Numbered from the stretch's first letter, positions 6,453 to 24,913 are shown. The stretch is 64,000 nt of DNA from Bdellovibrionales bacterium CG10_big_fil_rev_8_21_14_0_10_45_34 (GCA_002778785.1 PEZS01000016.1:274453-338452); one strand, 5' to 3'. Notes: generated from the sequence alone by a model not told the origin. A program made the numbers and translations.

Positions 6453-6492
6453 GCGGGTGTAGCTCAGTTGATAGAGCGTCGCCTTGCCAAGG
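6453..6492 (+). pseudogene. 5' half of a tRNA-Gly(GCC) gene split by the island
   Basis: Acceptor strand GCGGGTG (6453-6459), D arm, anticodon 5' stem TCGCC (6479-6483), loop TTGCCAA with anticodon GCC, then only GG before the sequence diverges into the island. Its partner is at 27210-27256: joining 6453-6492 to 27221-27256 gives a 76-base tRNA with perfect acceptor (GCGGGTG/CACCCGC) and anticodon (TCGCC/GGCGA) stems. As it stands, it cannot fold as a tRNA. Confidence 0.9.
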
Positions 6493-6504
6493 AGACGGTC
6501 TATC
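6482..6504. mobile_element. Left attachment site (attL): 11-bp core plus island-end inverted repeat
   Basis: Core CCTTGCCAAGG at 6482-6492 is the anticodon loop with two stem pairs. It is followed by the island end AGACGGTCTATC (6493-6504), the exact reverse complement of GATAGACCGTCT at 27198-27209. In the excised circle the two ends would flank one core copy as a 35-bp near-palindrome, the expected layout of a tyrosine recombinase crossover site. Confidence 0.88.
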
Positions 6505-6633
6505 AACTTTTGAGTAGTAGACTAATGGAGAGTTTGGTTAGAGATTTTATGAGTTTAGTGGATTGTTACTTTGAGAAAATCGGCATCTCAAAAAGCCAAA
6601 ACTGGCTAAGTGGCAAAAGCTGCGCTTTTAAGC

Positions 6634-6709
6634 GCGGGAGTAGCTCAGTTGATAGAGCGCTGCCTTGCCAAGGCAGAGGTCGCGGGTTTGAATCCCGTCT
6701 CCCGCTCCA
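6634..6709 (+). tRNA. tRNA-Gly(GCC), intact, carried by the island
   Basis: 76 bases including encoded CCA. Acceptor GCGGGAG/CTCCCGC pairs fully; D arm GCTC...GAGC; anticodon stem CTGCC/GGCAG with loop TTGCCAA (GCC at 6667-6669); T arm CGGG/CCCG around TTTGAAT. A T-rich run follows, suitable for termination. A small hairpin (AAAAGC-tgc-GCTTTT, 6615-6629) lies just upstream. It has the same anticodon as the split gene but differs in both the acceptor and anticodon stems, so it is not a duplication of that gene. It lies 130 bp inside the left boundary. Confidence 0.95.
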
Positions 6710-6757: not shown

Positions 6758-6976
6758 ATGAACAGCGATCCGAAAGTTGTTCCCTTCTTCAAAGGGAAAG
6801 TAAATCCCAAATACGCAAATGTTTCTGATTCCCTGAAGTGGGCTATCCCTATGATGGAAGCTCAAGACAGCCCTGAAGTTCAAGCTGGCCACAAAGCTTC
6901 GGAAGAGCGAGCCCGCGCAATGCGAGCCGAAAAAGAGCGGGCAAAACTCAAAGCCTCATTCAAAGTTATTTCTTAG
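6758..6976 (+). CDS. Small hypothetical protein
   Basis: 72 aa, no signal peptide. The N-terminal half contains VVPFFKGKVNPKYANVSDSL, and the C-terminal half is a charged helix rich in Ala, Glu, Arg and Lys (EERARAMRAEKERAKLKA). A GAGGG site precedes the ATG. It follows the island tRNA by 48 bp, and its last 11 bp overlap the 3' end of the integrase gene tail to tail. I do not recognise it; being next to the integrase it could be an accessory factor, but nothing in the sequence shows that. Confidence 0.5.
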   Translation: MNSDPKVVPFFKGKVNPKYANVSDSLKWAIPMMEAQDSPEVQAGHKASEERARAMRAEKERAKLKASFKVIS

Positions 6977-8264
6977 CAAAAGCCTTCAAAAACTGATTCG
7001 AGACTTGATTGATGTACTTTTCGGTCGTCCTGAATGAACTGTGCAAACAGCACTTCTGCAGGAAGTATGGATTCCCCAAATACCAATCATGCAGATGGAG
7101 CGCACCGATGGTCGCATAGCTATGCTTCCATGCGTGAGGGTGCAGAAACTTGAAATCGCAATCTTTAGCAATCTGTCGCCACCACTTCATAACGGTGTCA
7201 GGATGGCAATCAAGCAAACGATCTTTCGGGGCAATGTTCTTTTTGAGGAAACGAGCGACATCCACCAATATCTTGGGTGACGGCTGAACCATTGGTAACT
7301 GGATTCGTTCGCCTGAAGTTGTCTTAGTTGCGTCCTCAAAAACGAGAGCACCTTTTTCCCCACGGCTCCAGCCAGAAACGATATTGTCCTTCAAATCAAA
7401 GTTCGGCACGTCGTCATCGGGGTGCAAACATTCCGCATTCAAGCCCAGTAAGTTCCCACGACGGAGGCCCGTGCAGACTCCGAAGAAAATCGCATAGGCT
7501 TTCTTTTTCATCTCCAGATTATCTTTGTAAGCCTTGTCGATGGCATCCTTGATGTCATTCAACTCGTCCTCAGTGTAGGTCTCTTTCGTGCGGACACCTG
7601 TCACATCCTCACCACGGCGACGGGCTTGTTTCTTCTGTTCAAGGGTCATCTTGATATCGAGAGTATAAAAGTCGTCTTGACCAATATAGCCCGAATCCAA
7701 AAGAAACCGCATATACTCATTAAACGGTGTCGTGATTGAGCTGTAGGTGTTGTGCGAATATTTCTTTCCGCTCAGGGTCTTGGCCATCATCACATGAGTG
7801 CGAGCTTTTGCTTTGAAGTTTTTAAAATCCTTCGGGTGATTGCATCCGTTGCCTAAGAAGAACGGCATCCAAAATCGCTTCATCCAACCTTTGTAGGCAA
7901 ACGGAATACTGTGCGTACTTTTGAAGGCAACGAACTCATCCAGGTTGTCCTCAAAGTTGAACTCTTTGCTCTTGAGATCGAGCTTCTCTTGAATCTTGTA
8001 TTTCGGCAGAGCGTATTTATCTTTAAGCTCTTCATACAAACGGTGCTTCAACGCTTGAAAATGATTATCCTGATTCGCTGCGGCCTTTTTCAATTTGTGA
8101 GCACGAAGATACTCATTGATCTGTTTTAAGGTGGGTTGAACTTTGGAGCTGATTTGCACTTGCGCACCATTCGGAGGACGAATGGCGACACGCAGGGAAT
8201 CAAACTTCTTCCCAGCTCGCCACATTGGATAAATACCCTGGATGGTACTTCTGCCTTTTGCCAT
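6966..8264 (-). CDS. Tyrosine recombinase (island integrase)
   Basis: 432 aa. The C-terminal catalytic domain shows R268 (CTGLRRGNLLGL), H377 in LHPHAWKHSYAT, H408 (CLHSSFRTT) and the nucleophile Y417 (TTEKYINQ). An N-terminal DNA-binding region (about 100-200) precedes it. The second catalytic arginine of box II (HxxRH) is lysine here, K380. It lies at the left end of the island and is transcribed toward attL. Its job would be insertion and excision at the tRNA-Gly anticodon loop. Copies of the island-end motif lie upstream of its start, at 8352-8370. Confidence 0.88.
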   Translation of the reverse strand: MAKGRSTIQGIYPMWRAGKKFDSLRVAIRPPNGAQVQISSKVQPTLKQINEYLRAHKLKKAAANQDNHFQALKHRLYEELKDKYALPKYKIQEKLDLKSKEFNFEDNLDEFVAFKSTHSIPFAYKGWMKRFWMPFFLGNGCNHPKDFKNFKAKARTHVMMAKTLSGKKYSHNTYSSITTPFNEYMRFLLDSGYIGQDDFYTLDIKMTLEQKKQARRRGEDVTGVRTKETYTEDELNDIKDAIDKAYKDNLEMKKKAYAIFFGVCTGLRRGNLLGLNAECLHPDDDVPNFDLKDNIVSGWSRGEKGALVFEDATKTTSGERIQLPMVQPSPKILVDVARFLKKNIAPKDRLLDCHPDTVMKWWRQIAKDCDFKFLHPHAWKHSYATIGALHLHDWYLGNPYFLQKCCLHSSFRTTEKYINQVSNQFLKAFAKK

Positions 8265-8370: not shown

Positions 8371-8463
8371 CCAGTTTCTTCTATCACTTGTAGGCTATCC
8401 CGTGATGCCTGGTCTGTATAAAAGTTGACTTTATTTTCAAAAAATGTCAGCATTTATACCATT

Positions 8464-9030
8464 ATGACGAAGCTACCAAAAGCCCTTCAGAAAGGGCCCT
8501 TTACCTATAAACAAGCCTTGGCCTCTGGACTCAACTTGAGATCGGTCCGGCAACTTGTCGCTGAGGAGCAATGCTACACCGTTGCCAAAGGCGTCTATAT
8601 GCCAACGAATGTAGAGTACAATGAAGAAAACCAATTCAGGGCGGCCACTCTCATCGTGGGACAGCCTTCGGCCATTTGTTTAGTCTCTGCACTTTCGGTG
8701 TACGGACTTACCGATACCATTCCACGCAAAACATGGATCACAGTACCCGCAACGAAGCGGACTCAAGTTTCAAGCCTTAAAGTTTTGCGACAGAGCGATC
8801 CTCAATGGGACATCGGGATTGAAAAGAAAAATGGCTACACGATAACTTCCGTTGAGCGCACCCTTGTTGAATCTTTCTGCTATAAAAATATGATTGGCAG
8901 CACCGTCCCTATCGAAGCCCTGCGAGAAGCCGTCAGAAAAAAACTAACGACTCCTTCTAAAATACTCGATATGGCAAAAAAAATGAAAGTCGTTCACCGA
9001 ATACTTCCGTACTTAGAGGCAATGGCATGA
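8464..9030 (+). CDS. AbiEi-type antitoxin (type IV toxin-antitoxin)
   Basis: 188 aa from the ATG at 8464 (MTKLPKALQKG); an upstream TTG at 8425 would add 13 residues with no better ribosome site. An N-terminal winged helix (FTYKQALASGLNLRSVRQLVAEE) is followed by the AbiEi-type segment YMPTNVEYNEENQFRAATLI, the SAICLVSALSVYGLTD helix, and SVERTLVESF. In the family this protein represses the operon and neutralises AbiEii. Its stop overlaps the next start in ATGA, so the pair is translationally coupled. Confidence 0.8.
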   Translation: MTKLPKALQKGPFTYKQALASGLNLRSVRQLVAEEQCYTVAKGVYMPTNVEYNEENQFRAATLIVGQPSAICLVSALSVYGLTDTIPRKTWITVPATKRTQVSSLKVLRQSDPQWDIGIEKKNGYTITSVERTLVESFCYKNMIGSTVPIEALREAVRKKLTTPSKILDMAKKMKVVHRILPYLEAMA

Positions 9031-9881
9031 GCAAGATGATTTCTCCTGAAAAAATTCAACTGGAACTCAACAAACTCGCCAAAGCTTCAAAAACTCTTTC
9101 GGTGAATGACCTTCGCATGATTTTGGCCTTGGAGCGTGTGATCGCCCGCGTAGAGAATCACAAAAAACTCTCAAAGCATTTTGTTTTCAAGGGTGGGTTT
9201 GTTTTGCTTAAAACTGTCAATTCAGATCGCTTCACTCGTGATGTGGATGCGCTTGCCATCGGCCTTTCTCGCAAACAAGTCCCTGACCTTGTGGAAGATG
9301 CTTTGTCTCAAGATCTGCAGGATGGGCTTTGGTTCGGCGACGTCAAGACCAGCGATCTTGTAAATCAAGGGCCGTATGGCGGCTACACTTTCAACGCAGC
9401 TTTCACTATCGGCAAAGCCCCATCGGTTAAAGATCCAAAAATCAAAAAATTTTCCAGAATCCGTATTGACGTGGGATTTGGTGACGCGCTGGATTCGGTG
9501 CCAGAAAAACAATCCATGCCGTCTATTCTTGCGAGCGAAGAACCTGTCACTTGGTCGATCTATCCATTTGAGTTTATCTTTGCCGAAAAAATGGAAGCCT
9601 TGTTTTCTCGTGGCAGCAATAACTCCCGATCAAAAGACATCTACGATATGCAGCTCATCTTTGGAAAAATCAAAGACAAGAAATTGCTTCGCAAGGCCAT
9701 TCAAAAAACTTTTGAAAACCGCAAGACTCCAATCCCTGAATCGTTCTGGGCAACCGCCCAAGAGTTTGAATTGGCCGTTTTAAAAAAGGCCTGGGGTTCG
9801 GTTGAGCTATCAACTGGCGAAGAACCGTTCGATGATGTCTGGGAAAAGTTTTTGACGGTCTTGCGTTCTTTGGAGTCTTAA
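9027..9881 (+). CDS. AbiEii-type nucleotidyltransferase toxin
   Basis: 284 aa. The nucleotidyltransferase core is recognisable: HFVFKGGFVLLK (KGG at 55-57) and RFTRDVDAL (R71, D72, D74), then FARIRIDVGFGD-type strands (here SRIRIDVGFGDA) and PFEFIFAEKMEAL with the conserved K, followed by RSKDIYDMQLI. AbiEii toxins transfer nucleotides, reported on tRNA for relatives such as MenT, and cause abortive infection. It overlaps the antitoxin gene by 4 bp and is probably a defence or island-maintenance cargo. Confidence 0.82.
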   Translation: MSKMISPEKIQLELNKLAKASKTLSVNDLRMILALERVIARVENHKKLSKHFVFKGGFVLLKTVNSDRFTRDVDALAIGLSRKQVPDLVEDALSQDLQDGLWFGDVKTSDLVNQGPYGGYTFNAAFTIGKAPSVKDPKIKKFSRIRIDVGFGDALDSVPEKQSMPSILASEEPVTWSIYPFEFIFAEKMEALFSRGSNNSRSKDIYDMQLIFGKIKDKKLLRKAIQKTFENRKTPIPESFWATAQEFELAVLKKAWGSVELSTGEEPFDDVWEKFLTVLRSLES

Positions 9882-10182: not shown

Positions 10183-13059
10183 TTACTTTCCTAAGAACAA
10201 CTCACTACAACTCTTGCCAGCCGCGCCCGATGGCTTAGAAGACTTCGCAGGAACTGAGGTAACTGGAATAACTGGCGCCTCAGCTTTTAGTCTTGCGGCA
10301 ACGCCATAATTTGAATCACGGTAAATTTCTGCGCTATGAACGCCTGTCAAACCATTGCCGTCTCGGATCTGTTTTGCGATTGCATCCATACGAATTTGCA
10401 AAACCTCTTGGATACGTTGTGAGTTAACTTCTTGGCGACCTACCCGCATCACCTGGGCCAATACCTGAACCCCAAGTTTAAAAAAGTCAGCTCTGCTGAC
10501 TGTCTTTCGCAAGTTATCCAACATTGCGGGACCGTAATACAGTAACAGAGCCGGATCGCCTTTGAAGCCTGTCGCAGAAAACTCGCGTTCTAAAGTCATT
10601 CGATCATTCGCTGGGAGTTTTTGTAGGGCTTGAAACAACTCTTCACCGTCAGCCGCTGTTTGACAACGAAACATCAGGCCAACGCGAGTCATCCAAAGAG
10701 CGCGGCTGCTATCAGGCATTATGCTTGAACTTCTTTGACGAAGGAACTCTTGATAAGTTGCCTTTATTGATTCTTCTGAATTTGTCATGCCCTCGATGCC
10801 GGTCATCGCCGTTCTAATTCCAGCATAGGTCGGTTCTGTCAATACCAGCGAGCCATTGATGTTGTCTTGCCCACGGGCGGCAGCGATTTTTAGAATTGAA
10901 GTCGCCAAGTAAAAGTCCCGCGCGTCTTTTGAGCGATTGGCATGTTCTTTCAAAAGTCTGGCTGGAGCTTCGCCCTGAGCAAGTTGTGCAAGGTTAAATT
11001 CTTTTTCAAAACTGTTAACGACCATCTGTCTTTGAAATTCATCGAGACGCTGATAGGTCGGCGAGATGAATGGATAAAGTCTTAGCAGTTCAGACATGAC
11101 ACGTTGATGGTTTGTCTCCTGAATGCCCGATGATTTTTTAAGGTACGAAATTGCGGCTTCCGATTTTCCGATATTATTAAAAATTAAAAACGAAAACAAT
11201 GCGTCTCGCATAGACGGATTGAATGCCACTCGCCGAACAAGTTTTGAAATTTCTAAGAACGACTCTCGGCTCAGCCGAATATTTTCGGGCTGTCCGTGAA
11301 CGAAGCCATCGTAATCGCCCGCGATAAGCCGTTTGAACAACAACAAGGCGGCGATGGTGCGATCAAACTCAGGATACGGCTTATTGAACAACGACGTGGC
11401 TAAGGATTGCTCCAAAGCCTGGGGCACTGATCCAACTTGCTTCGGATAGGTCGCTTCATTTTTAGAACCGAGCCAGCCAAGCTCAGGAGTCAGAGTCACT
11501 CGTTCGGTGGTGGATACCAACTTGGCGGCGATAGCTTCAGGTGTGGCAACCACGCCTTCTGTTAACAGAATCAATTCTGGATAGGATTCCAAGACTACGC
11601 GAATCAACTCTTGATCCGTGACGCTTTCAACACGTCGATAGAGGTCTCTTAACTTACGAGTACGGCTTTCGTATTTTCTTTGGATCGCAGGAATCTCTAA
11701 TCCTCTCACCAAGCGCAGCGGTCCGCGTTTGTAACCCATGTTTTCAAATTTCTTTGTTGGGTCCGAATCAAAACGAGGATCTTTCGTAAGTTGCAAAGCA
11801 ACCGCTTCTGTTTCTGGATCAAGTCCAACATCTCTAACTAAAACAACAGGAACTTGCTTTGTTAGCGCGGATTGAACAATGCCTGCGTCTCTTGCTTCTC
11901 CTCGCAAAGCAACGACCTCGATTTTCTGTTTGAGTTCGTTATCCGAAAAAATTGAATCAACGGCACCATCGGCACCAATGACGACTGAATCCTTGCGATT
12001 TGGATTTTTGGCAAGTTCTGCGGAAATCCAGTCCCGTGCGCGACCGACGCCTTCTTGATGGGTCAAAATAAACAGCGTATCGGAACTATATGTTGAAGTA
12101 ATTTGATCGATGTATGACTTCAAGAGAGAAAAGTCCTCATATCCAAGGCGTCCATATCCAGCGAGAACGACGGTTCGTCGGTGACTTTTTGCCAAAGAAA
12201 ATAGCTCAGCAGAAGATGACAAGGTAATATCAGTTGGCTTCGGGACAGCCAAACCCAGTTGTCCTGTAAGATCGAAGTGTGTCGGCACTTTTTTGCCGCG
12301 AATCTGAACTGATTTAACGGCCGGAGAAATTCCATTCTCGATTTCCAAAGTTAAGTCTGCATAAGCAGATAAGTATTCAACTGACTCTCGAACGCCAGAA
12401 GACATTTTAATAACAAGATCTTTCGGCACAAACCGTCCAGTTACTTTGCCCCTTGCTTCCACTCGCTGAAGCAAAATTTCTTCAGGAGCATTGACCGAAA
12501 TAATTGAAATCGCATACTCGGGGTGCGATTGTCGGATGCGACGAAATTCAGAAACCCACCAGTCTTTTCCTAAAAGTGTTCCATCGACAATGATGTTCTT
12601 TTTTGAACGTAGAGCCTGCTCAAAGAGTTGCTCCTGAATATGCCCTGATTCACGGTGAACAAGTGACGCTGCATCTTCGGGCTTCGTTTGCTTAAGGTCT
12701 TTGTATTCGGGAATATCCTCTTTGATTGCATCTGGATCGATCCAGATGAACCTTGATACATCCAACAGGTCGAGCTTTTCTAAGGCCGACGCAACAAATG
12801 ATTTTCCTGCTCCTGCGGGGCCGGCGGTAAAAATCAGGCGTGGCCTTTCATCTGACGAGCCAGCTTGCATTCTAACGTCGACAATTTTTTTATGGAGCGC
12901 TGCTCTTAATGGAAGGTAAGTAAATTGCCATTGACCCGTTTGGGTTGCGAATTGAGATGCAGTATCTTGCGCATCAGCAGCAAACGAAAAAGCAGAAGAC
13001 AGCACGATAAGTGCGAAGAGAAAGTGTCTTGTGTGCTTTTTTAAAACTGCCAAAGCCAT
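10183..13059 (-). CDS. Exported zeta-toxin-like kinase with large helical C-terminal domain
   Basis: 958 aa. Residues 1-30 are a Sec signal peptide (basic n-region, LFALIVLSSAFSFA core, ADA). Residues 74-215 match the zeta-toxin kinase fold: Walker A GPAGAGKS (80-87), IDPD (107-110), HRESGHIQEQLFEQAL, IIVDGTL (157-162) and arginines R199-R209 in QRVEARGKVTGRF. Zeta toxins phosphorylate UDP-GlcNAc-type cell-wall precursors; they are normally cytoplasmic, so export is unusual. Residues 220-430 hold a Rossmann-like segment (VVLAGYGRLGYEDF). Residues 450-870 are a helical domain that aligns with the partner encoded upstream. The end reads SCSELFLGK. The start is backed by AGGAAG. It is second in a two-gene operon, 11 bp after the partner. 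No epsilon-type antitoxin is adjacent. Confidence 0.8.
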   Translation of the reverse strand: MALAVLKKHTRHFLFALIVLSSAFSFAADAQDTASQFATQTGQWQFTYLPLRAALHKKIVDVRMQAGSSDERPRLIFTAGPAGAGKSFVASALEKLDLLDVSRFIWIDPDAIKEDIPEYKDLKQTKPEDAASLVHRESGHIQEQLFEQALRSKKNIIVDGTLLGKDWWVSEFRRIRQSHPEYAISIISVNAPEEILLQRVEARGKVTGRFVPKDLVIKMSSGVRESVEYLSAYADLTLEIENGISPAVKSVQIRGKKVPTHFDLTGQLGLAVPKPTDITLSSSAELFSLAKSHRRTVVLAGYGRLGYEDFSLLKSYIDQITSTYSSDTLFILTHQEGVGRARDWISAELAKNPNRKDSVVIGADGAVDSIFSDNELKQKIEVVALRGEARDAGIVQSALTKQVPVVLVRDVGLDPETEAVALQLTKDPRFDSDPTKKFENMGYKRGPLRLVRGLEIPAIQRKYESRTRKLRDLYRRVESVTDQELIRVVLESYPELILLTEGVVATPEAIAAKLVSTTERVTLTPELGWLGSKNEATYPKQVGSVPQALEQSLATSLFNKPYPEFDRTIAALLLFKRLIAGDYDGFVHGQPENIRLSRESFLEISKLVRRVAFNPSMRDALFSFLIFNNIGKSEAAISYLKKSSGIQETNHQRVMSELLRLYPFISPTYQRLDEFQRQMVVNSFEKEFNLAQLAQGEAPARLLKEHANRSKDARDFYLATSILKIAAARGQDNINGSLVLTEPTYAGIRTAMTGIEGMTNSEESIKATYQEFLRQRSSSIMPDSSRALWMTRVGLMFRCQTAADGEELFQALQKLPANDRMTLEREFSATGFKGDPALLLYYGPAMLDNLRKTVSRADFFKLGVQVLAQVMRVGRQEVNSQRIQEVLQIRMDAIAKQIRDGNGLTGVHSAEIYRDSNYGVAARLKAEAPVIPVTSVPAKSSKPSGAAGKSCSELFLGK

Positions 13060-13070
13060 AAACTAACTTC

Positions 13071-15395
13071 CTATCTTGAAATCGCGGCTAAATGATCCGC
13101 TACGTTCATAAAGAAGATTCCCGCCATGCTTTGATCAACATGCACAAAAGGATTCCACGGATTTCTTCCATCAACCACGACGCGAGAAGGGATCGGAAGA
13201 ACTTGAAGTCCTAATTGACCGGTTAAAGCACGTTGCCATGTTAGCGGTGTTTTACCGAAGCGCGCGTCGTTGGCGCCGGTCATATCCCATTTTGTATAAA
13301 TCTGGAGAACTTGGGTTGATTGAGTTTGGTTAAGTTGAAAATATCTGGCTCCGGCAGAACCTAAAATAGCGCTGGCGTTATTTGGAGAATCAATTCCGGC
13401 AGCAACAATCGTCGAAATTTTATTTTGAACTGGCACTTCGCCGATAGCCGACAACACTCTTAAATCTTGGTCAGGAGTCGATTTTGCGCTGTTGAGTTGA
13501 GACGATGCTTTGATGGGATAAAGAGCGTCGCCGCCTGTGTCCACTGTGATAATCGTATCCACTCCTCGGAGCTGTTGGTTCAAGGAATTAAGTTGTCCAA
13601 CCAAAGTGCCGTTCTGGCGATCCATGACCAAAAACATTGGCACTTCGTCACTCGGAAGATTTTCGAGAAACCTTCCGCTTCCAGTTGTTTGCGGCAAAAT
13701 TCTATAAGTGCCATTAACAACTTCTCCGCCATGCTGTGATACGGTTCTATCTTCGCCATCACGTCCATTGAGGCCTTGAGAAGCCGTCTTTTCGGTTCTC
13801 ACTGAAGCGACGTAGACAAGTTCTTTACCGGCATTTTTCAAAAGTAAGCCAAGTTGCGCTGCCTGAATTCCATCTGAACCGCCACCAATTCCGATAACAG
13901 CAACACGATGGCCAGGAATCTCTGACAAGCTATTCAGGGGTGTGAATTTAGCTGAGTCAATAACTTGGCGATCAACTAATTTTGCTTCGCCATCTTTCGC
14001 AACAAGATCAATTTCAAATTTCTTAGTAACTAACTGCTCTGGAGTTTTTCCGGCCTCAGCGATTTTTGAAATCAAAAGCGTGAAGACGCCATCGCCGTTG
14101 CGCCCTTTAATTGTGACCCTCGCTTCTTGATAAAGTTGCGCAAGAGTCGTAAGGCCCAATTGAATGCCTGCATGCTCACTTAAAACTGTCGGATTTGCCT
14201 TTGAATAAGCGAGAATATTTGAAAGCAAAGCTGGCGAATAATAAAGAAGAGTTCCATATCCGTCGCCGGTGCCGTTGATGTTCATTTCTTTAACTAAGAT
14301 AGCTTTTGTATTTTGAGGAAGGCCATCAAATGCCGCTGTAATTCTTGATGCCGTATTGGTGTCTGATACGCGCATCATAGTTAACAAGCGGGTCAATGCG
14401 CGTTCTCGTGGAACTTCAACTCGCAATCCAAAAGGACGTCCTTTTTCAGATAAGAAATAGTTGTAAACATCGACTTCAGATCGGCCCTGAGCCAGTCCTT
14501 CGATAGCTTTAATGCCGAGCTTGAATCCGTCATAAGTCGGATTCGACATGACGACCGAGCCTTCCCAGTTAACATGGCCCGCAGCTCCGCCAATGTCTGC
14601 GACGGCGTGGAGTAAATAGAAATCCAGACTTTCTTTATCTAAGCCCTTTAAGCCAGAAAGACTTGCGGCAAGGTTTTCACCCTGAATGAACTGGCCGATG
14701 TTAAATTTCGGTCTCAAGCCTCGAATCATTTTCTGCTGAGTTGCAGGAGACAATCGAGCAAAACTTGGCGAAAGGTCCGGATGATTTTCTAAGGCAATAA
14801 GTAAGAGGTTATCGTGATCGACGTCTTTAATGCCCGCGCGTTTTTCAATTTCGCCGACGATTGATTTGATTTTCCCAAGATCGTTGATCACCATGTACGT
14901 AATCATGGCGTCAATATCTTCCGGAGTTTTGAGGATTGAGCGAGTGTAAGATCGGAGTTCATTAAAATTCTCACGGGTCATTTTAACTGCCGCGTTCTGC
15001 GGCTTTGTGAAAGCGTCGTAGTTGCCCTCAAGAATCCATTTGATAAGCAAGATTCCAGTCGCAGTTCGATCAAACTCAATATGTTTTTCGCCGAAGATTT
15101 TCTCGGAAAGAGACTGAACTTTGTCCGAATTTGCTTTGCCTTCTGGCGTGGCGTTTACTTTTCCGGTCAGCCACGCGAGTTCAGGGTATTGAACCAACGA
15201 CATTCGTACGACTTCAATGGGATCGCTTGAGGCAAAAAACTTTCTGACAAACGACTTCGGATTTGTAGGCATAGCCTTTTCGCTTCGGGCGCCAGCATTC
15301 AGGAAAAGATCCTGGCAGGATATAGCCGCGTGGGCGTGTGGGAGGCTAAGTTGCAATGACAAAAAAAGGATAGCAACTGTTGAACTTTTAGACAT
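13071..15395 (-). CDS. Exported protein with shared helical domain and C-terminal DUF1152-like domain
   Basis: 774 aa from the ATG at 15395, chosen over an in-frame start at 15464 because GGGAG lies upstream and a signal peptide (VAILFLSLQLSLPHAHA) then begins the protein. Residues 30-430 align with the C-terminal domain of the zeta-kinase neighbour (EFDRTATGILLIKWILEGNYD versus EFDRTIAALLLFKRLIAGDYD; NPTYDGFKLGIKAIEG versus EPTYAGIRTAMTGIEG). Residues 498-774 resemble DUF1152: a nucleotide-binding-like VAVIGIGGGSDG and TVDTGGDALYP (616-626). The mature N-terminus begins SCQDLFL, echoing the C-terminal SCSELFLGK of the kinase. It is first gene of the pair. The function is unknown; a partner, immunity or processing role for the exported kinase is inference. 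Confidence 0.7.
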   Translation of the reverse strand: MSKSSTVAILFLSLQLSLPHAHAAISCQDLFLNAGARSEKAMPTNPKSFVRKFFASSDPIEVVRMSLVQYPELAWLTGKVNATPEGKANSDKVQSLSEKIFGEKHIEFDRTATGILLIKWILEGNYDAFTKPQNAAVKMTRENFNELRSYTRSILKTPEDIDAMITYMVINDLGKIKSIVGEIEKRAGIKDVDHDNLLLIALENHPDLSPSFARLSPATQQKMIRGLRPKFNIGQFIQGENLAASLSGLKGLDKESLDFYLLHAVADIGGAAGHVNWEGSVVMSNPTYDGFKLGIKAIEGLAQGRSEVDVYNYFLSEKGRPFGLRVEVPRERALTRLLTMMRVSDTNTASRITAAFDGLPQNTKAILVKEMNINGTGDGYGTLLYYSPALLSNILAYSKANPTVLSEHAGIQLGLTTLAQLYQEARVTIKGRNGDGVFTLLISKIAEAGKTPEQLVTKKFEIDLVAKDGEAKLVDRQVIDSAKFTPLNSLSEIPGHRVAVIGIGGGSDGIQAAQLGLLLKNAGKELVYVASVRTEKTASQGLNGRDGEDRTVSQHGGEVVNGTYRILPQTTGSGRFLENLPSDEVPMFLVMDRQNGTLVGQLNSLNQQLRGVDTIITVDTGGDALYPIKASSQLNSAKSTPDQDLRVLSAIGEVPVQNKISTIVAAGIDSPNNASAILGSAGARYFQLNQTQSTQVLQIYTKWDMTGANDARFGKTPLTWQRALTGQLGLQVLPIPSRVVVDGRNPWNPFVHVDQSMAGIFFMNVADHLAAISR

Positions 15396-22798: not shown

Positions 22799-24913
22799 TC
22801 AAGCCGCCTTTCTTTTTTGGTTTTGTGTTTTTGATTTTCTGTAATTTTCCGTTTCCACAACCATGCCCAGTTGAGAAAGATAATCTAAACGCTCACCCAA
22901 TAAATCACCGCCATATACAAAGATGACTGAGCCGAACATGGCTTGCTTTTTGTTGATGGTTTCATTGTGAATAAGGCGCTGTTTTAGAAAAACAATATGA
23001 GTGGCACCTTCGCAGAATCCACGGAACCATTTACTTTCTGGCGTCCATGCGGGAACCAAAGAGAAAATAGGTTGGCCGTTTTGTTTGTATTCCGCCGCCA
23101 TTTTTTCCGCCCACGCTAATAATCCATTTTTATCGTTGTAAGGTGGATTGACAAAGACGCCATGGCCGCTACTGACTTCCCATGACTTTTTGAGAGCATT
23201 GTCTTTTTTGGTCAGTATTCTTTTAAACTTGTGAACCAAGTTTGCTTCCGAACCGGTAGCCGCGTCCAGCTCAAGCGGATACACAAAGTTTAAAAAATCC
23301 ACCAACCACTTAGGCGTCATCTGATGGTTTTTCTTGTCTTTGGTTTTCCAGCCTTCAATTGTTTCAAACAATTCTTTATCAGTAGAAGGCTCTACTTTAG
23401 TAAAAATAGGCGGCGGTGTAACTGAACCGCCTTTCACCAACGCCAATTTCTTTTTTGGAGTGCGGTTTGATTTTTCTACTAAGTCTTGCGTCCCGCCAGA
23501 AAAACGCGCACCTTTCATTTGCGGCTTTTGGTCTTGAGCGGCAGTTTCATTTGCCGCAACTTTTGGAGCCTTGGTCTTTTTGTTGGCTTTCAGCTTAGCT
23601 GTAACTTGTGGAGCTTTGCTCTTTTGGGTGGCTACGGCTTTCTTATTTTTTTGCGGTGGCGCTGGGTCAATTCTCTTTCCAGAGTTTTTAGTAACCCGCA
23701 CGCCCTTATCCCACAATGTCAGTGAAACAAGGATTTCTTTGAATAGCTCACGGATTACCGGAACTGGGACGGAGTTCCCCAGCTGTTTGTAACTTTCAGA
23801 TGCAGACGCCGTGAGTTTGTAGTTGTCTGGAAAGCCTTGAAGCCTTGCGCATTCCCGTGGGGTGAGTTTGCGTAAGTGAACTTTTTTGGTATTTCCATCT
23901 TTATCCGTCAAATCATACACGCCACGGTTTTTAGGTGCGCTCTTTTCAAGGGGCACCGCCACAAGATTTTTTAGCAGTGATGATGTTGACCGCAAGATGG
24001 TGTGCGTGGGTTTAGCAGGGTCAATGATTTCAAAGCCAAAGTTATCGCCATTTTTGTCATAGCGGTCTTTTGCTTGAACCAGCGTATCTATTTGCTCTTG
24101 GCTAAGGAAATAGTTTTTGTGAACGGAGTTTTCTAAAATCTCACCACTTGCCGCCGCAAGAACGGTTGGCTTTGGAAAACTGAACGGAACATTCTCACGG
24201 AAAGCCACAATGAAAAGTCTTTCACGGGCTTGCGGCACACCATAGTGAGATGCTTTTATAACTTGGTGGTGAGTGTAGTAGCCACGGGAATGTAGTTCTT
24301 TAAGAACGGTTTTTAATCCACGGCCACCATTGGTGGTAGCCATGCCTTTTACATTCTCAATGAAAAGAACACGGTGTTCCGGGTGGGCGTCCGCAATTCT
24401 AAAAACGTCATAGATAAGTTGCCCACGGTTATCTTTGAGACCTTTGCGTTTGCCTTGAGTAGAAAAAGATTGGCACGGTGTTGAAGCCGTCAACACGTCA
24501 AAGTTAGGCACCGTGTCCGCTTTAAGTTGAGTAATATCCCCAAATGGGCAATCACCAAAGTTGTCCTGATAAGTGGCAATGCAGTGTTTATCAATTTCAC
24601 TTGCGGCTACCACCTTAAATCCCGCTTGTTCAGCACCTAAACGGGTGCCGCCGATTCCGGCGAACGCTTCAAAAATTGTGAGCGGTTGAACGTTGCCGCC
24701 ATTTGGCTTTTTGTGTTTCACCCACCGCAATGCCTTGAACCAGCTTGCCGCTTGAGTGCGGGTGTTTTGGATTTGTTTAAAAATCCAATTCCGCACCTGA
24801 TTAAAAAGTGCGGTCAGTATTAACACCCATTGCGCGGTATTAATTTTTGTTGGTGCTACCTGAGTAGCGGTTTTCTTTTTAGAACGGGACTTGGTTACAG
24901 TTTTTGATTTCAT
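22799..24913 (-). CDS. Fused DNA methyltransferase: C5-cytosine domain plus phage-type N6-adenine domain
   Basis: 704 aa. Residues 75-400 are a complete C5-cytosine methyltransferase: FAGIGG (84-89), catalytic PCQ (146-148), ENV (186-188), QARERL (228-233), RKLTPRECARLQGFP (348-362) and QLGNSVP (377-383). A Lys/Ala-rich linker (about 405-500) joins it to a second domain (530-690) like the phage Dam-type N6-adenine methyltransferases: TPKWLVDFLNF, LELDAATG, VFVNPPY (NPPY 589-592), LVPAWTPESKWF. Both carry their catalytic motifs, so one protein may make 5mC and 6mA. Residues 1-75 are a basic extension with a hydrophobic stretch. No restriction endonuclease is recognised nearby, so anti-restriction or self-marking is likely. 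AGGAGG precedes the ATG. Confidence 0.88.
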   Translation of the reverse strand: MKSKTVTKSRSKKKTATQVAPTKINTAQWVLILTALFNQVRNWIFKQIQNTRTQAASWFKALRWVKHKKPNGGNVQPLTIFEAFAGIGGTRLGAEQAGFKVVAASEIDKHCIATYQDNFGDCPFGDITQLKADTVPNFDVLTASTPCQSFSTQGKRKGLKDNRGQLIYDVFRIADAHPEHRVLFIENVKGMATTNGGRGLKTVLKELHSRGYYTHHQVIKASHYGVPQARERLFIVAFRENVPFSFPKPTVLAAASGEILENSVHKNYFLSQEQIDTLVQAKDRYDKNGDNFGFEIIDPAKPTHTILRSTSSLLKNLVAVPLEKSAPKNRGVYDLTDKDGNTKKVHLRKLTPRECARLQGFPDNYKLTASASESYKQLGNSVPVPVIRELFKEILVSLTLWDKGVRVTKNSGKRIDPAPPQKNKKAVATQKSKAPQVTAKLKANKKTKAPKVAANETAAQDQKPQMKGARFSGGTQDLVEKSNRTPKKKLALVKGGSVTPPPIFTKVEPSTDKELFETIEGWKTKDKKNHQMTPKWLVDFLNFVYPLELDAATGSEANLVHKFKRILTKKDNALKKSWEVSSGHGVFVNPPYNDKNGLLAWAEKMAAEYKQNGQPIFSLVPAWTPESKWFRGFCEGATHIVFLKQRLIHNETINKKQAMFGSVIFVYGGDLLGERLDYLSQLGMVVETENYRKSKTQNQKRKAA

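What the first reader, a model, noticed from the sequence alone, without database searches (positions are those of the whole stretch)
10183..15395. Two-gene exported system: secreted zeta-type kinase and a DUF1152-like partner sharing a helical domain
Both proteins have Sec signal peptides and share a roughly 400-residue helical domain. One has an N-terminal zeta-toxin kinase with intact Walker A and catalytic motifs; the other a C-terminal DUF1152-like domain. Zeta toxins poison cell-wall precursor synthesis inside cells, so an exported version pairs poorly with ordinary toxin-antitoxin use. In a predatory lineage it could act on prey, on competitors, or in the periplasm. The end and start motifs SCSELFL and SCQDLFL suggest a common module. 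I know of no described system with this layout.
Basis: partly seen in the sequence, partly recalled or inferred. Interest (0 to 1): 0.88.

Follow-up and report, generated by a model that had tools for sequence, protein, structure and literature searches.

The report
Exported zeta kinase with sister-domain partner
A Bdellovibrio-order bacterium carries a two-gene island operon encoding two proteins that look exported, one a kinase of the zeta-toxin family and one a probable nucleotide-processing enzyme; both carry the same little-known domain, intact in one and stripped of its conserved acidic residues in the other, which suggests a paired weapon or processing tool used outside the cell that makes it.

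Summary
Two genes on the minus strand, 11 bases apart, each have their own ribosome site and a Sec-type signal peptide. Gene A (958 aa) is signal peptide + zeta kinase + unresolved middle + DUF6829. Gene B (774 aa) is signal peptide + DUF6829 + DUF1152-type domain. The zeta fold is firm (Z 18.8 to solved zeta) and its catalytic residues are present. The shared helical domain is Pfam DUF6829, for which I found no paper.

New here:
(1) B's DUF6829 has every invariant residue, but A's has lost all four invariant aspartates. A decayed relative in another family lost the same four, so A's domain is a conserved pseudo-domain.
(2) Signal peptides recur on zeta kinases in this phylum (8-9 of 14 loci) but on none of 14 in Alphaproteobacteria.
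(3) Elsewhere DUF6829 joins DUF1152 or a nucleoside-deoxyribosyltransferase-like domain, mostly without signal peptides: a nucleotide theme.
(4) The pair sits in a tRNA-linked island beside an integrase and AbiE.

Most likely an exported nucleotide or nucleotide-sugar-attacking effector pair. Delivered zeta-type kinases are already known (AvrRxo1, T4SS effectors), so this is a new variant. Substrate, target cell and predatory lifestyle are unproven.

The parts
13071..15395 (-). Gene B, 774 aa: signal peptide + intact DUF6829 + DUF1152-type domain (first gene of the pair)
15321..15395 (-). Signal peptide of B (MSKSSTVAILFLSLQLSLPHAHA)
   Evidence: heuristic score 6.40; RBS GGGAG upstream
15300..15320 (-). 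SCQDLFL motif at the predicted mature N-terminus of B
   Evidence: sequence; rarity
14025..15260 (-). DUF6829 domain of B, all helical, all invariant residues present (D172, D193, D195, D267)
13074..13958 (-). DUF1152-type alpha/beta domain of B
10183..13059 (-). Gene A, 958 aa: signal peptide + zeta kinase + middle region + degenerate DUF6829
12973..13059 (-). Signal peptide of A (MALAVLKKHTRHFLFALIVLSSAFSFAADA)
   Evidence: heuristic score 7.29; RBS AGGAAG
12274..12924 (-). Zeta kinase domain of A: GPAGAGKS (K86, S87), IDPDAIK (D110, K113), VDGTL (D159, T161), R203, R209
11650..12252 (-). Middle region of A (residues 270-470), no homologue found, model confidence too low to name a fold
10372..11487 (-). 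DUF6829 of A, degenerate: the four invariant Asp are N629, N650, Q652, K724
10192..10212 (-). SCSELFL motif at the C-terminus of A
   Evidence: sequence
8425..9881 (+). AbiEi/AbiEii toxin-antitoxin pair next to the operon (context, not part of it)
6966..8264 (-). Tyrosine recombinase/integrase of the island, next to tRNA-Gly 6634-6709 (context)

Best explanation
A and B are an exported enzyme pair, carried as cargo of an integrated mobile island, that acts on nucleotides or nucleotide sugars outside the producing cell, most probably those of a prey or competitor cell. Shown: the layout, the zeta kinase fold with intact catalytic residues, the intact DUF6829 in B, the pseudo-DUF6829 in A, and signal-peptide-like N-termini. 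Inferred: both proteins leave by Sec; A's kinase phosphorylates a nucleotide-type metabolite (UDP-sugar as in zeta, or NAD as in AvrRxo1) with ATP of the target cell; B is the active hydrolase or transferase of the pair; A uses its dead DUF6829 copy as a docking or regulatory module, perhaps for B.
For: Zeta fold Z 18.8/18.5/18.0 to zeta and PezT and 16.4 to the delivered kinase AvrRxo1 (Foldseek E 2e-10). Catalytic K46/T47/D67/K70/R158 of zeta correspond to K86/S87/D110/K113/R203 (residue list PMC4938570). Signal-peptide-like N-termini on 8 of 14 zeta loci of this phylum (9 with L038), in several families, against 0 of 14 in Alphaproteobacteria (Fisher p 0.002). A Sec signal alone releases a reporter from B. 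bacteriovorus, and Bd0468-mCherry reaches the bdelloplast (PMC12622784). DUF6829 partners elsewhere are a nucleoside-deoxyribosyltransferase-like domain (E 9e-14) or DUF1152. D172/D193/D195/D267 are invariant in B and in all nine other members that cover this region, and all replaced in A; a 71%-identical decayed copy in another family has the same replacements, and synonymous changes are saturated at dN 0.23, so the domain was kept under purifying selection. Two-gene secreted effector systems are reported for Bdellovibrionota (PMC12419801).
Against: No biochemical data exist. ATP is scarce outside cells, so an exported kinase needs access to a target's cytoplasm, and no delivery part was found. 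Substrate residues are mixed: E100 and T118 of zeta are kept (E143, T161), R120 and T121 are not. Predation by this organism was not tested. Signal peptides were judged by a home-made rule. Relatives of B in gut Alphaproteobacteria and of the domain in Bacilli carry no signal peptide, so export may not be the ancestral use. The pair itself was found together only in this genome.
Confidence: 0.45

Rival explanations
1. Scavenging: the pair trims nucleotides or nucleotide sugars freed from digested prey so that they can be taken up. It is a digestive and not a killing tool.
For: Sec-exported hydrolases are abundant in Bdellovibrio (PMC12622784); older work cited in PMC7529429 reports uptake and use of intact nucleoside monophosphates by B. 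bacteriovorus. DUF6829 partner domains suggest nucleotide processing.
Against: A kinase that spends ATP on an extracellular substrate is an odd scavenger. The domain is rare (4 of 368 phylum genomes) and the genes are island-borne, unlike core digestion genes.
Confidence: 0.2
2. Island-encoded defence or competition module acting in the producer's own envelope (exclusion of phage or of a second predator, or toxin/immunity), with B restraining or reversing A.
For: Neighbours are an integrase and the AbiE pair; the decayed A-type copy in G256 lies near an integrase remnant and a small toxin-antitoxin-like pair. Both proteins would be in the same compartment and share a domain.
Against: No match in PADLOC; no ATP source in the periplasm; A-like signal-peptide zeta kinases elsewhere in the phylum stand without B.
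Confidence: 0.17
3. Ordinary cytoplasmic toxin-antitoxin pair whose hydrophobic N-termini are not export signals.
For: The zeta family is classically cytoplasmic, and relatives of B without a signal peptide exist.
Against: Both proteins and many phylum homologues carry n-, h- and c-regions with cleavage motifs and good ribosome sites. B is a 774-aa enzyme, not an epsilon-like antitoxin. A relative without signal peptide (L008) starts directly at the domain, without the N-terminal extension.
Confidence: 0.08
4. Functionless cargo on its way to decay, as in G256.
For: The related A-type gene in G256 is broken (stops and frame breaks).
Against: Both genes here are full-length, with ribosome sites and intact kinase motifs; the degenerate domain shows purifying selection.
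Confidence: 0.05

Closest known systems
Zeta / PezT toxins (PF06414; 1gvn, 3q8x, 2p5t)
   Same: Fold (Z 18-18.8), Walker A, catalytic Asp, lid arginines
   Different: Signal peptide, fusion to a further 700 residues, no epsilon antitoxin; UDP-GlcNAc contacts only partly kept
AvrRxo1-ORF1 (Xanthomonas type III effector; phosphorylates NAD at the 3' position)
   Same: Zeta-fold kinase sent out of the producing cell (Z 16.4)
   Different: T3SS delivery, small partner Arc1, no DUF6829; different export route
Zeta-domain antibacterial T4SS effectors (X-Tfes) and polymorphic-toxin zeta domains
   Same: Zeta kinase used against other cells
   Different: T4SS or other export signals; no paired DUF6829 enzyme
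Other signal-peptide zeta proteins of this phylum (L022, L025 with HAD-type phosphatase-like C-terminus; L023, L024, L026-L028, L037, L056)
   Same: Sec-type N-terminus plus zeta kinase
   Different: No DUF6829; some have a HAD-like second domain instead
DUF6829-DUF1152 proteins (L007 with signal peptide; L008, L017-L019 without)
   Same: Same architecture as gene B, 36-39% identity
   Different: Stand alone, no kinase partner; the gut Alphaproteobacteria ones look cytoplasmic
Nuc_deoxyri_tr2-DUF6829 proteins of gut Bacilli (L010-L012)
   Same: Same DUF6829 domain
   Different: N-terminal nucleoside deoxyribosyltransferase-like domain, no signal peptide

Membership tests
Zeta_toxin kinases (PF06414) | Profile score above the curated cut-off | tested here: met
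   97.4 bits against 22.3
Zeta_toxin kinases (PF06414) | Zeta fold | tested here: met
   Z 18.8, rmsd 3.2 over 206 residues to 1gvn; domain pLDDT about 92
Zeta_toxin kinases (PF06414) | Catalytic residues K46, T/S47, D67, K70, R158 | tested here: met
   K86, S87, D110, K113, R203
Zeta_toxin kinases (PF06414) | UDP-GlcNAc-binding residues E100, T118, R120, T121, T128 | tested here: inconclusive
   E143 and T161 kept; R120 and T121 positions are L and G; T128 not mapped with confidence
Zeta_toxin kinases (PF06414) | UDP-sugar kinase activity | not testable with these tools
   needs enzymology
Epsilon/zeta toxin-antitoxin system | Small epsilon/PezA antitoxin encoded next to the toxin | tested here: not met
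   The partner is a 774-aa DUF6829-DUF1152 protein with a signal peptide; no small antitoxin ORF in the operon
Epsilon/zeta toxin-antitoxin system | Cytoplasmic toxin | tested here: inconclusive
   Signal-peptide-like N-terminus by a home-made rule; localisation not measured
DUF6829 (PF20717) | Profile score above the curated cut-off | tested here: met
   A 142.4 and B 249.7 bits against 27
DUF6829 (PF20717) | Invariant acidic residues D172, D193, D195, D267 (pattern found here), gene B | tested here: met
   Present in B and in all nine other members that cover the region
DUF6829 (PF20717) | Invariant acidic residues D172, D193, D195, D267 (pattern found here), gene A | tested here: not met
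   N629, N650, Q652, K724 in A; A is a member by sequence but probably not by activity
DUF1152 (PF06626) | Profile score above the curated cut-off for B itself | tested here: not met
   16.9 bits against 27
DUF1152 (PF06626) | Relatives and fold | tested here: met
   7 members match, best E 1.8e-8; fold match to a DUF1152 viral protein, E 8.6e-6, TM 0.60
HD-superfamily phosphohydrolase (for DUF6829) | H-HD-D metal motif | tested here: inconclusive
   NDLGK in B and HDLGK in L007, then DHD and D267 in the right order, but no clear first His
HD-superfamily phosphohydrolase (for DUF6829) | Profile similarity | tested here: inconclusive
   hhalign to three HD families not above column-shuffled controls
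HD-superfamily phosphohydrolase (for DUF6829) | Fold | tested here: inconclusive
   Five separate HD-type proteins (EF1143, BT4208, PDE2A, PDE9, TbrPDEB2) among the helical matches, but Z only 5.0-6.6
AvrRxo1-type delivered kinase | Arc1-like small partner | tested here: not met
   Partner is a large DUF6829-DUF1152 protein
AvrRxo1-type delivered kinase | Type III secretion signal | not tested
   A Sec-type N-terminus was found instead
AvrRxo1-type delivered kinase | NAD 3'-kinase activity | not testable with these tools
   needs enzymology

The most novel reading that the evidence does not exclude
A Sec-exported enzyme/pseudoenzyme effector pair of predatory bacteria: an exported zeta-type kinase that carries a catalytically dead copy of its partner's metal-dependent domain and uses it to dock with or regulate an exported DUF6829-DUF1152 nucleotide hydrolase, the two together destroying prey nucleotide or nucleotide-sugar pools.
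Probability: 0.25. Interest if true: 0.82.

Novelty: new variant of a known kind. Interest (0 to 1): 0.6.

Why it matters
If right, the phylum that contains Bdellovibrio has turned an intracellular toxin kinase into a Sec-exported weapon or tool, which raises a testable question: how does an ATP-dependent enzyme work after export? It also gives a first functional handle on DUF6829, for which no paper was found: an active/inactive domain pair, four candidate catalytic aspartates, and partner domains that point to nucleotides. How Bdellovibrio-type predators stop prey metabolism is an open question that these proteins could help answer.

Tried and rejected
No relatives of B in phages, plasmids or viral contigs; A finds only ordinary zeta toxins in plasmids and phages and nothing in viral contigs. 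PADLOC: nothing for A or B. Three attempts at a full-length alignment of A (A4-A6) put zeta rows on DUF6829 or the reverse and were dropped; A residues 1-473 were folded instead. The middle region of A has no Pfam match and no usable model; a resemblance to Rossmann or SLOG-like sequence seen by eye was not testable. A possible middle-domain hit in G289 was an unrelated sterol-carrier-like protein on the opposite strand. HD membership of DUF6829 by profile comparison failed to beat shuffles. The LmbE/MshB deacetylase-like fold matches of B's C-terminal domain (Z 8-9.9) are near the level expected without a true relative, and B lacks the AHPDDE motif (from memory of that family); the DUF1152 match was preferred. 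No direct repeat of the tRNA-Gly end was found inside the window, so the far end of the island is not defined. No PMC paper in the library mentions DUF6829 or DUF1152.

Full report
Observation. B comes first on the strand; A starts 11 nt after the stop of B, and each has a ribosome site, so they very probably form an operon. B could start further upstream (797 aa), but the ATG at 15395 has the ribosome site and leads straight into a signal peptide. Both N-termini have the n/h/c structure of Sec signals. SignalP was not available, so this rests on a home-made score.

Domains. Pfam gives Zeta_toxin (97.4 bits) and DUF6829 (142.4 bits) in A, and DUF6829 (249.7 bits) plus a weak DUF1152 (16.9 bits) in B. 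The shared 'helical domain' is therefore a named family of unknown function. The DUF1152 assignment is backed by seven family members that match it (best E 1.8e-8) and by a fold match of the modelled domain to a giant-virus DUF1152 protein (E 8.6e-6, TM 0.60).

Kinase. AlphaFold2 of A residues 1-473 gave the zeta part at pLDDT about 92. It matches the solved zeta (Z 18.8), zeta with substrate (18.5), PezT (18.0) and AvrRxo1 (16.4). The catalytic residues listed for zeta in PMC4938570 (K46, T47, D67, K70, R158) correspond to K86, S87, D110, K113 and R203. Of the UDP-GlcNAc contacts, E100 and T118 are kept (E143, T161), while R120 and T121 are not. The kinase should work; its substrate is open. 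The region between zeta and DUF6829 (270-470) has no homologue and no reliable model.

Signal-peptide zeta kinases are a phylum theme. A search of 368 genomes of the phylum found 16 other genomes with a match to the N-terminal half of A. Of 14 zeta-matching loci, 8 (9 with the closely related L038) have signal-peptide-like N-termini. In 289 Alphaproteobacteria genomes the zeta domain of A as query gave 14 loci, none with one (Fisher p 0.002), and three plasmid zeta toxins had none. Two of the phylum's exported zeta proteins (L022, L025) have a HAD-type second domain instead of DUF6829 (read by eye; weak phosphatase hit in L025). The tree shows the label clustered, not one clean origin.

DUF6829 elsewhere. 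It is rare: 4 of 368 genomes of the phylum and 5 of 43 in one gut alphaproteobacterial order. Architectures: DUF6829-DUF1152 with signal peptide (L007, Bacteriovoracaceae); the same without signal peptide (L008, L017-L019, gut Alphaproteobacteria); and nucleoside-deoxyribosyltransferase-like + DUF6829 without signal peptide (L010-L012, gut Bacilli). The pair A+B was seen only here. The partner domains with a known relative (zeta kinase, nucleoside deoxyribosyltransferase) act on nucleosides, nucleotides or nucleotide sugars.

Active and inactive copies. In B and in all nine other members that cover the region, D172, D193, D195 and D267 are invariant; in A they are N629, N650, Q652 and K724, while neighbouring conserved residues (E107, R110, Q133, Q235, E240, R336, Y385, Y386) are kept. 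The nine include near-identical pairs (L018/L019, L017/L020), so the independent number is nearer six. A decayed A-type gene in another family (G256, 71% identical over 340 aa) has the same four replacements. Its protein-level divergence is modest (dN 0.23) while synonymous sites are saturated, so the domain was kept by selection after losing these residues. The simplest reading is a catalytic, probably metal-binding domain in B and a pseudo-domain in A.

What DUF6829 might be. The B model is good (pLDDT 81.9, pTM 0.81). Several unrelated HD-superfamily proteins appear among its helical matches (EF1143, BT4208, PDE2A, PDE9, TbrPDEB2; Z 5.0-6.6), and the order ND/HD...DHD...D fits. But one helical match that I did not classify scored higher (3wfr, Z 8.7), helical folds reach such values by chance, and profile comparison to HD families did not beat shuffles. 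HD-type phosphohydrolase is a lead only.

Setting. The operon lies in a region that starts at tRNA-Gly with a tyrosine integrase, an AbiEi/AbiEii pair, a CI-like repressor and a DNA methylase fusion. The G256 copy is near an integrase remnant and a small toxin-antitoxin-like pair (read by eye). The genes look like mobile cargo.

Mechanism. Known: a Sec signal alone releases a reporter from B. bacteriovorus, and Bd0468-mCherry reaches the bdelloplast (PMC12622784). Known: zeta-fold kinases are delivered into other cells by T3SS (AvrRxo1, NAD 3'-kinase; PMC5491322) and appear among T4SS antibacterial effectors (PMC6536674) and polymorphic toxins (PMC12419801), which also reports two-gene secreted effector systems in Bdellovibrionota. 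From this I infer that A and B are an exported pair that attacks or processes nucleotides or nucleotide sugars of another cell, A supplying the kinase and B the active DUF6829/DUF1152 enzyme, held together or regulated through the shared domain. The weak points are the ATP supply, the missing delivery part, and the unproven lifestyle of this organism, whose family has no other genome in the set searched. Scavenging of prey nucleotides and an island defence role remain open.

Verdict. Real, well formed, rare, and not described as such in the library searched; built from known parts, and with precedents for delivered zeta kinases. New variant of a known kind; interest 0.6.

Noticed in passing
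L007:1671-5075 and 8810-9523: In a Bacteriovoracaceae MAG the relative of gene B is flanked by further signal-peptide proteins that look like intracellular enzyme types (two that read as methyltransferase-like and one GNAT-like by eye, no Pfam or NCBIfam hit where tested). This hints at a wider set of exported enzymes.
   Followed up: partly
L022, L025, L028 (zeta loci): Exported zeta kinases fused to a HAD-type phosphatase-like domain (D-x-D motifs; weak NIF-phosphatase hit in L025), a kinase-phosphatase layout reminiscent of T4 polynucleotide kinase.
   Followed up: partly
window 10192-10212 and 15300-15320; L056: SCSELFL / SCQDLFL peptides at the end of A and the mature start of B; a similar NCKQLF follows the signal peptide of the L056 zeta protein. 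C..LF is rare in this genome. Meaning unknown.
   Followed up: partly
window 6453-6530: A second tRNA-like sequence (GCGGGTGTAGCTCAGTTGATAGAGCG, one mismatch to the tRNA-Gly start) that ARAGORN did not call.
   Followed up: no
L009:3553-6485: In a Bdellovibrio MAG the N-terminal two thirds of DUF6829 are missing; the remaining part plus DUF1152 is read in overlap (stop/start) with an upstream signal-peptide gene.
   Followed up: no
window 22799-24913: A 704-aa fusion of a C5-cytosine methylase and a Dam-like N6-adenine methylase in the same island.
   Followed up: no
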